NCBI RefSeq assembly: GCF_014206815.1
Contig: NZ_JACHNP010000002.1
Location: 310,001 to 374,000, forward strand
DNA from: Xanthomonas sp. F10
GTDB lineage: Bacteria; Pseudomonadota; Gammaproteobacteria; Xanthomonadales; Xanthomonadaceae
Direction of reading: 5' to 3'
Length of the DNA: 64,000 bases
The notes below the pieces were generated by a model. That model did no database searches. It was not told the origin of the DNA and worked only from the letters and a program-made list of their open reading frames with translations. This document shows, piece by piece, positions 29,083-35,095 of this stretch. The stretch's first letter is position 1. Each line of letters opens with the position of its first letter. A program made the position numbers and the translations under genes.

Positions 29083-30519
29083 ATGCCCCGTTCGCTGCTG
29101 CGGCAACTGCTGCTGATCTGGATCGTCATCGTCGCCGCCTGCGTGGGCATGGCGGTGGTGCTGGTCGGGCTGTACCGGCACAGCGAGGGTGTGCGTGCCG
29201 AGCGCGCGCAGACCGGGCTGCGCGAGGTGTGCACGCGCATGGTGCAGCGCTACAACGGTGCCAGCGTCGCCGCCCACGGCAGCGACGGCGCCGGCCTGGC
29301 GGCGGTGGTCACGCAACTGGTGCTCACCGATGCCACCGGCGTGGAGGGCGGGTTCTGGGACCGCCAGCGCGGCTTCCTCGCCTATGCCTATCCCACCTAC
29401 GACGGCACCGAGCACAAGACCGACGTGCCCTCGGCCGAGCGCAACGTCATCGTCGCCACCGCGCAGCGCGGCGTGGAGGCGCAGCACACCGTGGACTACC
29501 GCCGCGACGGGCAGCGCGAGAGCCTGCTGATCGCGGCCTGTCCGCTGGATCGCAACGCCGCGGCCTGGACCATGACCCGGGTCGCCTCCAGCGATGCGGC
29601 GGCCAGCCTGCCGCTGGCCTTGGGCCTGGCGCTGATCCTGGCCCTGGTGGTGGTCTCGGCGTGGGCGTTGGGTTGGGTGGTACGGCGCTGGAGCCAGCGC
29701 CTGCAGGGCATCGAGCAGGCGCTGGCGACGCCTGCCGAGGTGCCGGAGATCCCGCGCACCGGCGCGCCGGAGCTGGACCGGCTCGGCGCCGCCGTCACCG
29801 ACTACGCGCAGCGCAGCGCGCAGGCGCTGGCCGAGACCCGCCGGCTCGGCGAGGAACTGTCGCGGAACGAGCGCCTGGTCGCGCTCGGGCGCATGACCGC
29901 GACCGTGGCGCACGAGATCCGCAACCCCATCGCGACCCTGCGTCTGGCCCTGGAGAACCAGATCGCCGCGCGCGCGGATGGCTTCGACGACGCCCAGGCG
30001 CAGCTGATGCTGGCGCAGATCCAGCGCCTGGATGGCGTGGTCGAAAGCCTGCTCGGCATGGTCCAGCCGATCCGCCTGCAGCGGCAGACCGTGGACCTGC
30101 AGCCATGGCTGCAGGCGCTGCTTGCCCCGGCCGAGTGGGAGGGGCAGGCGCCGCCGGTCGTGCTGCGCCTGGAGGCCGCGCCGGCGCAGTGGATGCTCGA
30201 TCCGCAGCAGGCCGCGCGTGCGCTGCACAACCTGCTGCGCAATGCCCTGCAGCACGCCACGCCCGGGACCGAGGTGACCCTGGCGGTGCAGGCCGAGGAC
30301 GACCGCCTGCGCCTGCGCGTGCGCAACCACGGCGCGCCGGTGTCGGCGCCCGTGGCCGCGCACCTGTTCGAACCCTTCGCCAGCGGCCGCAGCGACGGCA
30401 ACGGCCTGGGCCTGGCCCTGGTGCGCGAGATCGCCCGTGCGCACGGCGGCGAGGCGCAGTACGCGCACCGTGACGGCATCACCGAGTTCAGCCTGGAACT
30501 GCCATGGCGCGCATCCTGA
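29083..30519 (+). CDS. Membrane sensor histidine kinase of a sigma54 two-component system
   Basis: The 478-residue NtrB-class kinase has TM1 at about 8-30, an extracytoplasmic sensor domain (31-174) of unrecognised fold, TM2 at about 175-200, an H box VAHEIRNPIATL with His277, and N and G boxes including GNGLGLALVREIARAHGG near the end. The sensor contains conspicuous aromatic and charged residues (FWDRQRGFLAYAYPTYDG) but no motif naming a ligand. It overlaps the response-regulator start by 16 bases, so the pair is translationally coupled and surely cognate. Confidence 0.92.
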   Translation: MPRSLLRQLLLIWIVIVAACVGMAVVLVGLYRHSEGVRAERAQTGLREVCTRMVQRYNGASVAAHGSDGAGLAAVVTQLVLTDATGVEGGFWDRQRGFLAYAYPTYDGTEHKTDVPSAERNVIVATAQRGVEAQHTVDYRRDGQRESLLIAACPLDRNAAAWTMTRVASSDAAASLPLALGLALILALVVVSAWALGWVVRRWSQRLQGIEQALATPAEVPEIPRTGAPELDRLGAAVTDYAQRSAQALAETRRLGEELSRNERLVALGRMTATVAHEIRNPIATLRLALENQIAARADGFDDAQAQLMLAQIQRLDGVVESLLGMVQPIRLQRQTVDLQPWLQALLAPAEWEGQAPPVVLRLEAAPAQWMLDPQQAARALHNLLRNALQHATPGTEVTLAVQAEDDRLRLRVRNHGAPVSAPVAAHLFEPFASGRSDGNGLGLALVREIARAHGGEAQYAHRDGITEFSLELPWRAS

Positions 30520-31844
30520 TCATCGACGACGACACCGCATTCCTGAGCACGCTGCAGGCGACCCTGTGCTCCTTCGGCCACGACACCATCGCCGTCGCCG
30601 ACCCGCGCGAGGGGCTGGCGCGCCTGGGCGAGGACGGCATCGACCTGGCCTTCGTCGATTTCCGCATGCCCGGCATGGACGGCATCGCGCTGATGCGCGC
30701 GCGCCAGGACGACGCCCAGGCCATGCGCGTGCCGCTGGTGATGCTCACCGCGCACGCCTCCAGCGGCAACACCATCGAGGCGATGAAGCTCGGCGCCTTC
30801 GATCACCTGGTCAAGCCGGTGGGCCGTGCCGATATCGCCGAGGTGGTCGAGCGCGCGCTGCGCAGCCGCGGCGACGCCGCGCCGGACACCGCGCCGGCGC
30901 GGCCGGCCGAGGAGGAGGATGCGCTGCTCGGCCATAGCGCGGCGATGCGTACCGTGCACAAGCGCATCGGCCTGGCGGCCGCCTCCGACCTGCCGGTGCT
31001 GATCACCGGCGAGACCGGCACCGGCAAGGAACTTGCGGCGCGCGCGCTGCACCGTGCCAGCGCCCGCGCCACGCAGCCGTTCGTGGCGATCAACTGCGCG
31101 GCCATCCCCGCCGAGCTGATGGAGAGCGAACTGTTCGGCTACCGCAAGGGGGCGTTCTCCGGCGCGGCGAGCGACCGCAATGGCCTGATCCGCGACGCCG
31201 ACGGTGGCACCCTGTTTCTCGACGAGATCGGCGACATGCCCTTGCCGATGCAGGCCAAGCTGCTGCGCTTCCTGCAGGAAGGGGAGGTCTCGCCGCTGGG
31301 CGGGCGTGGCGCGCAGAAGGTGGACGTGCGGGTGATCGCCGCCACCCACCGCGACCTGCTGCAGGCGGTGGATGCCGGGCGCTTCCGCAGCGACCTGCGC
31401 TACCGGCTCAACGTGGTGCCGATCGAACTGCCGCCGCTGCGCGAGCGCGGCGACGACATCCTGCTGCTCGCGCAGCACTTCCTCGCAGCCGGCGCCAGCG
31501 CGCCGCAGACGCTGTCGCCCGCGGCGCAGGCGCGCCTGCGCAGCTACCCGTGGCCGGGCAACGTGCGCGAGCTGCGCAATGCCATGCAACGTTGCCAGGT
31601 GCTGGTGCGCGCGCCGGTGATCGAGGCGCACGACCTGGACGAACTGCTGGCGTCGCCGTCGTCCGAGTCGCCGGCAGCGCTGGAGACCGACGCACTGACC
31701 CTGCCGCAGGCGATCGCGCAACTGGAACGGCAGATGATCCAGGCCGCGCTGACCCAGGCCCACGGCAACCGCGCCGAGGCCGCGCGCCGGTTGGGTATCC
31801 ATCGCCAGCTCCTGTACCGCAAGCTCGACGAGTACGGGCTGTAG
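30504..31844 (+). CDS. Sigma54-dependent response regulator (NtrC family)
   Basis: The 446-residue protein has a receiver domain with phospho-acceptor Asp52 ([13 protein letters not shown]) and Lys104, then an AAA+ sigma54-activator core with Walker A GETGTGKE (169-176), Walker B GGTLFLDE (234-241) and a GAFSGA loop (216-221) in place of the usual GAFTGA. A Fis-type HTH closes the protein ([21 protein letters not shown]). It should bind enhancer DNA and remodel sigma54 holoenzyme when phosphorylated by the adjacent kinase. A perfect dyad and a consensus -24/-12 promoter lie immediately downstream, so the next gene is the prime target. Confidence 0.94.
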
Positions 31845-31864
31845 GCGGCGCGCTGGCGCGCCGC

Positions 31865-33685: not shown

Positions 33686-33761
33686 GTGCCGAGCCGTCGC
33701 GGCGGTGTGCCCCTGGCCACCGCCGCGCCTGTGTTTCCCTCCGCTCCTCCAGGACACCGTC

Positions 33762-33839
33762 ATGCCGCCCGTCGCACCTGCGCAGCACCGCGCTTTCCTG
33801 TCCCTGCCGCCGTCGGCGTTTCCGGCGGTGCACGCATGA
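33762..33839 (+). CDS. Possible 25-residue leader peptide overlapping the MFS start
   Basis: This ORF (MPPVAPAQHRAFLSLPPSAF...) has AGGA 10 bases before its ATG and ends with TGA overlapping the transporter ATG (ATGA at 33836-33839). The transporter itself has no good ribosome site, so coupled translation is plausible. The peptide has no recognisable function. Confidence 0.4.
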   Translation: MPPVAPAQHRAFLSLPPSAFPAVHA

Positions 33840-35095
33840 GCGGCGCCGGTCCGCGCCAGCGCCCGCGTGGCACGCGCGCACTGGAGGCGCTCAACTTCAC
33901 CATGGCCGACGTGCAGGACGGGCTCGGCCCGTTCCTGAGCGTGTTCCTGCAATCCAAAGGCTGGTCGCTGGGCGCGATCGGCTCGGTGATGACTGCCGGC
34001 GGCATCGTCGGCATGCTCGCCACCACACCAGGCGGCGCGCTGGTCGATGCGACCAAGCGCAAGCGCAGCATCGTGGTGGTCGGCTGCAGCATGATCCTGC
34101 TGGCCTCGGCGCTGCTGTGGTGGTCGCCGACGCTGCCGGGCGTCATCGCCGCACAGGTGATGACCGCGCTTGCCGCCGCCGCACTGGGGCCGGCGTTGTC
34201 CGGCATCACCCTGGGCCTGGTGCGGCAGGCCGGCTTCGATCACCAGATCGCGCGCAACCAGGTCGGCAGCCATGCCGGCAACGTGGTGGCCGCGGCGCTG
34301 GCCGGCGTGCTCGGCTGGAAATTCGGCTTCGGTGCGGTGTTCGTGCTGACCGGCTGTTTCGGCGTGCTGGCGATTATCTCGGTGTTGCTGATTCCGCGCG
34401 ACGCCATCGATCACCGCGCCGCGCGCGGCATGGCCGAGAAAGAGGACGCCGACGGCGCCCACGTCAGCGGCTGGTCGGTGCTGCTGACCTGCAAGCCCCT
34501 GCTGGTGCTGGCCGCGGCGCTGGCGCTGTTTCATCTCGGCAATGCGGCGATGCTGCCGCTGTACGGCATGGCGGTGGTGGCCGCGCATCAGGGCGATCCG
34601 AGCGCGCTGACCGCCACCACCATCATCGTCGCCCAGGCCACCATGGTGCTGGTCTCGCTGCTGGCGATGCGCCTGATCCGCGTGCGCGGACACTGGTGGG
34701 TCCTGCTGCTGACCTTCCTGGCGCTGCCGCTGCGCGGGCTGATCGCCGCCAGCTTCATCCATACCTGGGGCGTGTTCCCGGTGCAGATCCTCGACGGCGT
34801 CGGCGCCGGCCTGCAGAGCGTGGCGGTGCCGGCGCTGGTGGCGCACCTGCTGCAGGGCACCGGCCGGGTCAACGTGGGGCAGGGCGCGGTGATGACGATG
34901 CAGGGCGTCGGCGCGGCGCTGAGTCCGGCGCTGGGCGGCTGGATCGCACAGGCGTTCGGCTATCGCGCCGCGTTCCTGCTGCTGGGCGGCGTCTCGCTGC
35001 TGTCGCTGGCGTTGTGGGTGGGCATGCGCAAGCACCTGGTGGTGGCGAACCGCGAACGTGCGGCCGACGCACCGGTGCCGCCGCTGCCGGCGTAG
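33836..35095 (+). CDS. MFS transporter
   Basis: The 419-residue protein has about 12 membrane helices and an MFS loop motif GGALVDATKRKR. The N-terminus NFTMADVQDGLGPFLSVFLQ and the second half LLTFLALPLRGLIAASF place it in the drug/metabolite MFS group; the substrate is unknown. The ATG at 33836 was chosen because it overlaps the stop of a small leader ORF and begins just before conserved sequence; the frame extends upstream without homology. It follows the two repeat proteins co-directionally by 150 bases and may be the transport arm of that system. Confidence 0.85.
   Translation: MSGAGPRQRPRGTRALEALNFTMADVQDGLGPFLSVFLQSKGWSLGAIGSVMTAGGIVGMLATTPGGALVDATKRKRSIVVVGCSMILLASALLWWSPTLPGVIAAQVMTALAAAALGPALSGITLGLVRQAGFDHQIARNQVGSHAGNVVAAALAGVLGWKFGFGAVFVLTGCFGVLAIISVLLIPRDAIDHRAARGMAEKEDADGAHVSGWSVLLTCKPLLVLAAALALFHLGNAAMLPLYGMAVVAAHQGDPSALTATTIIVAQATMVLVSLLAMRLIRVRGHWWVLLLTFLALPLRGLIAASFIHTWGVFPVQILDGVGAGLQSVAVPALVAHLLQGTGRVNVGQGAVMTMQGVGAALSPALGGWIAQAFGYRAAFLLLGGVSLLSLALWVGMRKHLVVANRERAADAPVPPLPA

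What the first reader, a model, noticed from the sequence alone, without database searches (positions are those of the whole stretch)
29083..35095. Candidate undescribed sigma54-controlled envelope system: kinase, activator, enhancer dyad, -24/-12 promoter, repeat paralogues, MFS carrier
Six elements are arranged in order on one strand. A kinase and sigma54 activator are translationally coupled, a perfect dyad and consensus sigma54 promoter follow within 230 bases, and the promoter faces two tandem paralogues of unrecognised family plus a transporter. The sequence shows each element; that they form one regulon and envelope pathway is inference. No system known to me has this composition.
Basis: partly seen in the sequence, partly recalled or inferred. 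Interest (0 to 1): 0.72.

Follow-up and report, generated by a model that had tools for sequence, protein, structure and literature searches.

The report
Sigma54 two-component regulon, tandem OB proteins
A bacterial sensor and its activator appear to switch on, through one well-defined promoter, small paired-barrel proteins of unknown role and often transporters, and the same arrangement recurs in distantly related bacteria.

Summary
Kinase (HK) and NtrC-type activator (RR) overlap by 16 nt. An enhancer, TGTCCG-N5-CGGACA, lies 84 bp upstream of a -24/-12 element; 43 of 43 Xanthomonas rows keep this layout. Outside Xanthomonas, 58 of 72 loci have it upstream of an OB gene. In two genomes HK/RR lie on another contig, yet the enhancer is kept. 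In others the same element precedes an MFS gene, phosphoesterase genes or a second OB gene. In 398 phylum genomes, 6 have both HK and protein A, 3 A only, 1 HK only. A models as tandem OB folds; A and B match no Pfam or NCBIfam family. A is exported; B has no signal peptide, so 'envelope system' is only partly right. Accessory genes vary: MFS, ArsB/CitMHS, YdcZ, metallophosphoesterase. The kinase sensor is PDC/Cache-like with a near-invariant cysteine pair. Most likely a dedicated sense-and-transport (stress or anion homeostasis) module, working like ZraPSR but not a member. Ligand unknown. Eight library searches found no paper describing it.

The parts
29083..30519 (+). Sensor histidine kinase: two TM helices, PDC/Cache-like periplasmic domain (about residues 35-170) with near-invariant Cys50 and Cys153, HisKA, HATPase_c
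   Evidence: Pfam; AF2 model and PDB second look; Cys pair
30504..31844 (+). NtrC-type response regulator: REC, sigma54 AAA+ domain (GAFSGA loop variant), Fis-type HTH
   Evidence: Pfam; motif count
31965..31981 (+). Predicted enhancer core TGTCCG-N5-CGGACA, centre 84 bp upstream of the -24 GG; unique in the genome at <=2 mismatches
31949..31997 (.). Full 23+3+23 nt perfect inverted repeat containing the enhancer core; outer arms are lineage-specific
32038..32050 (+). IHF-like motif TATCAATGCTTTA between enhancer and promoter; exact motif in 16 of 43 Xanthomonas rows
32056..32071 (+). -24/-12 sigma54 promoter TGGCACGGCCTCTGCA
32119..32904 (+). Protein A: exported, Pro-rich, two tandem OB folds (predicted)
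32934..32975 (+). Two strong predicted RNA hairpins in the A-B gap; similar in nine of ten relatives folded, a different strong hairpin in the tenth; may lower B and MFS expression relative to A (inference)
33002..33685 (+). Protein B: paralogue of A without signal peptide, His/Lys-rich tail; two repeats aligned with the OB repeats of A (B itself not modelled)
33836..35095 (+). MFS transporter (start codon uncertain; listed ORF opens at 33686)

Best explanation
A dedicated sigma54 two-component regulon. The kinase's periplasmic PDC/Cache-like domain, probably held by a Cys50-Cys153 disulfide, senses a small ligand or stress and phosphorylates the NtrC-type regulator. That regulator binds TGTCCG-N5-CGGACA about 84 bp upstream of a -24/-12 promoter, contacts RNA polymerase-sigma54 by DNA looping (an IHF-like site lies between them in part of the lineages), and switches on A, B and MFS as one transcript in which hairpins favour A. 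A acts as an exported tandem-OB binding protein and B as its cytosolic counterpart. The MFS and, in other hosts, ArsB/CitMHS and YdcZ transporters plus a phosphoesterase move or process the same compound, most likely a toxic or metabolic small anion. Shown by sequence comparison: gene order, enhancer-promoter layout, co-occurrence, predicted folds. Inferred: phosphotransfer, DNA binding, single transcript, ligand, direction of transport.
For: Enhancer and -24/-12 at 83-85 bp in 43 of 43 Xanthomonas rows. Outside Xanthomonas 58 of 72 loci (70 of them with an OB gene) have the pair upstream of an OB gene: 59 sites, 49 at 83-85 bp and 10 at 93-94 bp (Pseudomonas and Burkholderia stagnalis, one helical turn further); 38 of the 59 have 0 or 1 mismatch. 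The same scan of shuffled loci gave 11 hits in all against 83. Exact half-sites: 68 in 53 loci, shuffled mean 4.5, maximum 12. HK, RR and A occur in the same 16 of 60 relatives. In 398 phylum genomes HK is in 7 and A in 9, 6 shared. HK and RR lie in the same locus as A in 28 of 28 evaluable Xanthomonas loci and 44 of 47 evaluable others. Two of those three exceptions keep the enhancer and have HK and RR on another contig. The same element precedes a phosphoesterase gene upstream of HK (L100), a separate MFS gene (L119), a divergent phosphoesterase-MFS-ArsB operon (L160) and a second, divergent OB gene (L116). HK-RR-A-B-MFS is cleanly missing between poxB and cysG in 2 of 4 lacking own-genus genomes, one with a 73-bp HK remnant. 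The window's genome has two matches to the RpoN DNA-binding domain.
Against: No expression, binding or phenotype data. Three RpoN-less genomes carry A alone. A Rhodanobacter MAG has an OB gene, phosphoesterase and MFS without the enhancer or this HK, although it has RpoN. Plasmid stretches of Spirosoma (with phosphoesterase, ArsB and YdcZ), Methylocapsa and Caballeronia M1242 plasmid 3 have an OB gene without HK/RR nearby; the last strain has HK/RR with another OB gene on a different plasmid. Three loci with HK, RR and A (L108, L109, L118) lack the paired site upstream of A; L118 has only the reversed half-site order. G558 has HK-RR with phosphoesterase, ArsB-like and YdcZ-like genes but no OB gene and no recognisable enhancer. 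In Pseudomonas oryzihabitans and X. albilineans-type loci no MFS was found near A, so the transporter is not essential. Of the 24 other hits of the scan only four or five lie before module genes, two of these weak (L085, L108); the remaining 19 or so exceed the 11 of the shuffled control only modestly. Most Comamonadaceae promoters have GA or GG where -12 GC is expected.
Confidence: 0.7

Rival explanations
1. Nutrient-uptake version: a carboxylate-sensing system like CitAB or DctBD, in which the PDC kinase senses an organic acid and induces its uptake; A and B are binding proteins for it.
Against: The fold covers many ligands; WalK-type and amino-acid chemoreceptor domains score as well. Most Xanthomonas loci hold only an MFS of these transporters, and several lineages none nearby (the ArsB, CitMHS and YdcZ queries were not run on the Xanthomonas loci). 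The ArsB and YdcZ models are exporter families.
Confidence: 0.22
2. Metal or metalloid stress response working like ZraPSR: A is a periplasmic metal-binding or chaperone protein induced by envelope metal stress.
For: HK scores best with AtoS and ZraS, RR with NtrC, AtoC and ZraR; the smallest form is kinase, activator and one exported protein; a PPH motif recurs in the repeats and B has a His-rich tail; ArsB-like members.
Against: A models as tandem OB (recalled: ZraP is a helical CpxP/Spy-type protein); the His of the second PPH is replaced by Pro in some rows; no metal data.
Confidence: 0.22
3. The OB proteins act on nucleic acid (for example DNA uptake or protection), and the transporters are bystanders.
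For: Best PDB fold matches are SSB, PriB and tRNA-synthetase OB domains; B has a Lys-rich tail.
Against: OB is a generic fold; A is exported; the repeated association is with transporters and a phosphoesterase.
Confidence: 0.1
4. No single regulon: the genes are merely neighbours and the promoter-like site is unused.
For: No experiment; short motifs occur by chance; a minority of OB genes lack the site and the kinase.
Against: Fixed spacing across classes, non-adjacent loci that keep the enhancer, loss as a block.
Confidence: 0.03

Closest known systems
ZraPSR (E. coli/Salmonella)
   Same: Membrane kinase, NtrC-type activator and sigma54 promoter controlling a small exported protein encoded next door (ZraPSR layout recalled); HK and RR score among the nearest with ZraS and ZraR
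   Different: Exported protein models as tandem OB, not ZraP-type (ZraP fold recalled); ZraS and ZraR cut-offs not reached; cytosolic paralogue and transporters in the operon
DctBD / CitAB-type carboxylate systems
   Same: PDC/Cache-like periplasmic sensor; DctBD is sigma54-dependent (PMC3162934, passages seen); CitMHS transporters in some loci
   Different: Near-invariant Cys pair, effector family without a library model, MFS/ArsB/YdcZ partners
YgiW/BOF-type periplasmic OB proteins (recalled)
   Same: Small exported OB proteins linked to stress
   Different: Two OB units per protein, Pro-rich leader, cytosolic partner; no Pfam hit for A or B at E<=0.1

Membership tests
NtrC-family sigma54 two-component activators | REC + sigma54 AAA+ + Fis-type HTH in the regulator | tested here: met
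NtrC-family sigma54 two-component activators | GAFTGA sigma54-contact loop | tested here: inconclusive
   window RR has GAFSGA; in 42 RRs: GAFTGA 28, GAFSGA 11, GSFTGA 1, GALGGA 1, not read 1
NtrC-family sigma54 two-component activators | -24/-12 promoter with upstream enhancer at fixed helical phase | tested here: met
NtrC-family sigma54 two-component activators | RpoN- and activator-dependent transcription | not testable with these tools
   needs mutants or in vitro transcription; RpoN domain present in the genome
ZraPSR | ZraS and ZraR models above curated cut-off | tested here: not met
   136 bits against 479, and 372 against 760
ZraPSR | ZraP-type effector | tested here: not met
   A has no Pfam or NCBIfam hit and models as tandem OB
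ZraPSR | Zinc/envelope-stress induction | not testable with these tools
   no expression data
OB-fold proteins | Five-strand barrel with helix between strands 3 and 4 | tested here: met
PDC/Cache sensor kinases | PDC fold of the periplasmic domain | tested here: met
PDC/Cache sensor kinases | Ligand-binding residues of a named subfamily | not tested
   no residue-level comparison made

The most novel reading that the evidence does not exclude
A cross-phylum sigma54 regulon, recognisable by its enhancer alone, whose core output is a paired set of exported and cytosolic tandem-OB proteins that hand an unknown small molecule between periplasm and cytosol for the attached transporters and phosphoesterase: a new kind of ligand relay or detoxification system triggered by a disulfide-bearing PDC kinase.
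Probability: 0.3. Interest if true: 0.75.

Novelty: new variant of a known kind. Interest (0 to 1): 0.55.

Why it matters
It gives a protein family that Pfam and NCBIfam do not model a regulator, a predicted promoter and partners, which makes its function directly testable. The inferred enhancer could let the regulon be traced in further genomes and assigns a likely target to a set of NtrC-type activators, including those of crop-associated Xanthomonas.

Tried and rejected
Enhancer as the whole perfect dyad: rejected, only the core is shared. The GGGATT inverted repeat as regulatory: rejected, it is a genome-wide repeat. IHF-like site as a universal part: rejected, the exact motif is in 16 of 43 Xanthomonas rows, though many Comamonadaceae loci have it on the other strand. 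Other sigma54 sites upstream of HK, B or MFS in the window: none as good (best 9.7, 10.0 and 10.9 against 14.4 for the A promoter). Anti-phage system: PADLOC gave matches for the RR only, to other AAA+/HTH and REC-type proteins. PDB sequence relatives of the OB family: none at E<=1. MFS relatives in PDB: weak, best SLC18B1 at 8.7e-6. Papers: eight library searches listed none that describes this system; passages only were seen of PMC6090019, PMC7280030, PMC3162934, PMC10924375 and PMC12316311. An 'ntrC family' regulator mutant in X. oryzae pv. oryzicola (GX_XOC0286) could not be matched to this RR. The ORF caller mixed strands in GC-rich DNA; its clusters were used only to pick proteins.

The 72 loci include second copies (L136/L107, L138/L083) and two HK-RR loci without A (L156, L157); 7 of the 59 OB-gene sites have 3 mismatches; 3 of 31 Xanthomonas and 2 of 49 other loci were set aside because a contig end lies just upstream of A (L038, L066, L067; L077, L114); in L105 the HK is cut by the contig end. 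One search kept the best 80 of 98 relatives, so distribution counts from it are partial. Plasmids: 13 of 21 matching records were looked at; 10 of the 13 have HK and RR in the stretch; 28 of 30 A proteins scored as exported by a crude hydropathy rule that picks the best-scoring start codon, so it leans that way; L108 gave no start and dropped out. The 60-genome counts use E limits of 1e-3 (A, B), 1e-110 (RR) and 1e-60 (HK). That searches drew the same 398 genomes is inferred from the same handles in both. In this second version I corrected, after rechecking: weak family matches are ten, not eleven; the hairpin is similar in nine of ten relatives; three more OB-without-kinase stretches and three loci lacking the site are told; best-explanation confidence lowered from 0.72 to 0.70 for these.
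Full report
WHAT IS THERE. The window shows poxB (27145-28869), a sensor kinase (29083-30519), an NtrC-type regulator (30504-31844), an intergenic region, protein A (32119-32904), protein B (33002-33685), an MFS transporter (about 33836-35095) and a convergent cysG-like gene (35099-36151, reverse strand) (the name cysG is from recall). The host is taken to be a Xanthomonas: genomes placed in the window's own genus share contig lengths with X. albilineans CFBP2523, X. bonasiae FX4 and Xanthomonas sp. NCPPB 1128 and GPE 39. Kinase: HATPase_c 1e-19, HisKA 8e-8. 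Regulator: REC, sigma54 AAA+ 3e-70, Fis HTH. A and B have no Pfam or NCBIfam match at E<=0.1.

PROMOTER. In 14 of 15 sequences read (window and 14 relatives; one relative escaped the search pattern) the intergenic region has the core dyad with its centre 84-85 bp upstream of the -24 GG, and the -12 GC lies 47-50 nt upstream of the A start codon. On a wider set, which includes the one that escaped, the layout is found in 43 of 43 Xanthomonas rows, spacing 83-85. The core is unique in the window's genome at up to 2 mismatches. An IHF-like WATCAANNNNTTR lies just upstream of the promoter in 16 of those 43 rows. Upstream of HK, B or MFS no site scores near the A promoter. The A-B gap holds strong predicted hairpins in the window; nine of ten relatives have similar ones, L035 a different one.

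DISTRIBUTION. HK, RR and A are found in the same 16 of 60 relatives, and at the limits used in none of the other 44, four of which are of the window's own genus. B is found as its own gene in 14 of the 16; the two without it (G002, G016) keep HK, RR and A, and no MFS was found there. Of the four own-genus genomes lacking the system, two have poxB directly next to cysG, one with a 73-bp remnant of the HK start; in the other two only cysG was seen in the stretch fetched. So at least in those two it was lost as a block. In 395 family genomes the 46 strong matches lie in two genera; ten further genomes have weak matches (E 9e-5 to 1e-3). A scan of species genomes kept 80 of 98 relatives: 31 Xanthomonas and 49 others, among them Variovorax, Paracidovorax, Pseudorhodoferax, Pseudacidovorax, Pseudomonas oryzihabitans, Bradyrhizobium, Hyphomicrobium, Roseomonas, a Rhodanobacter MAG and a Terriglobia MAG. 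HK and RR lie in the same locus as A in 28 of 28 evaluable Xanthomonas loci and 44 of 47 evaluable others, outside Xanthomonas at HK 35-46% (main piece) and RR 52-60% identity. In an even sample of 398 phylum genomes A is in 9 and HK in 7, 6 shared. The three A-only genomes are of one genus, 2.0-2.5 Mb, without an RpoN match; I take it for Commensalibacter-like from recall only. The HK-only genome, G558, has HK-RR followed by phosphoesterase, ArsB-like and YdcZ-like genes and no OB gene near. Of 21 plasmid records with a match 13 were looked at: 10 have HK and RR in the stretch; the fullest (Caballeronia L118, Paraburkholderia L163) show HK, sigma54 regulator, two hypothetical OB proteins, metallophosphoesterase, MFS, arsenic transporter and DMT transporter. 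Spirosoma, Methylocapsa and Caballeronia M1242 plasmid 3 have an OB gene without HK/RR.

REGULON TEST. In 53 non-Xanthomonas loci the stretch before the best -24/-12 candidate holds 68 exact half-sites (41 loci with at least one); 200 base shuffles gave mean 4.5, maximum 12. A joint scan (site with up to 3 mismatches at set spacing plus -24/-12) of 72 loci gave 83 hits against 11 in shuffled loci. Recounted by script, 58 loci have it upstream of an OB gene, 59 sites: 10 with no mismatch, 28 with one, 14 with two, 7 with three; 49 at 83-85 bp and 10 at 93-94 bp, one helical turn more. Of the 14 loci without it, L156 and L157 hold no OB gene, L077 and L114 are cut upstream of A, L115, L122, L141-L143, L159 and L161 have no HK/RR, and L108, L109 and L118 have HK, RR and A and so count against. 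Two natural experiments support a trans link: a Variovorax and a Terriglobia genome where A has enhancer and promoter but no HK/RR beside it carry HK and RR on another contig. The Rhodanobacter MAG, without enhancer, has only kinase-domain matches (a MAG may be incomplete). The same element precedes a phosphoesterase gene in Bradyrhizobium (L100), a separate MFS gene in Methylocystis (L119), a divergent phosphoesterase-MFS-ArsB operon in Caballeronia (L160) and a second, divergent OB gene in Roseomonas (L116).

MECHANISM. Shown by comparison: a kinase-activator pair tied to one enhancer-promoter layout and to OB proteins, with transporters and a phosphoesterase as frequent members. Inferred: signal by phosphorylation and looping, one A-B-MFS transcript with A most abundant, and handling or export of a small compound. 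The transporter types that recur (MFS, ArsB/CitMHS, YdcZ) and the PDC sensor point to a small anion or toxic metabolite; I give about even odds to stress/export against all other roles together.

KNOWN OR NEW. It works like ZraPSR (kinase, sigma54 activator, exported protein next door; recalled layout) but fails that membership: curated cut-offs not reached and a different effector. It is a new variant of NtrC-type sigma54 two-component regulation with an effector family that Pfam and NCBIfam do not model. Eight library searches listed no description; most subscription papers are not held, so this is no proof of absence.

Noticed in passing
31865-31950: GGGATTGGGGATT inverted repeat element; the 140-base stretch holding it has 83 matches in the same genome. 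It flanks the enhancer but is absent in distant relatives.
   Followed up: partly
32934-32975: Two strong predicted hairpins between A and B (10-bp stem with TTCG loop, then a second GC-rich stem), similar in nine of ten relatives folded; possible mRNA stabiliser or attenuator.
   Followed up: partly
L068-L099 upstream of A: Most Comamonadaceae promoters read TGGCACG-N5-TGAG or TGGG: the usual -12 GC is replaced by GA or GG.
   Followed up: no
L172 9975-13377: HK-RR followed by metallophosphoesterase, ArsB-like and fused YdcZ-like genes with no OB gene; the RR has an unusual GALGGA loop.
   Followed up: partly
L142 7547-8323 (reverse strand): Lone tandem-OB protein with a signal-peptide-like start beside ATP synthase genes in a small genome without an RpoN match.
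   Followed up: partly
L108 2784-2800: Weak enhancer-plus-promoter-like site (3 mismatches) upstream of the kinase instead of A, perhaps a single autoregulated operon in this Hyphomicrobium MAG.
   Followed up: no
27145-28869: poxB-like ubiquinone-dependent pyruvate dehydrogenase immediately upstream; seen beside the module in Xanthomonas loci only among those compared.
   Followed up: no
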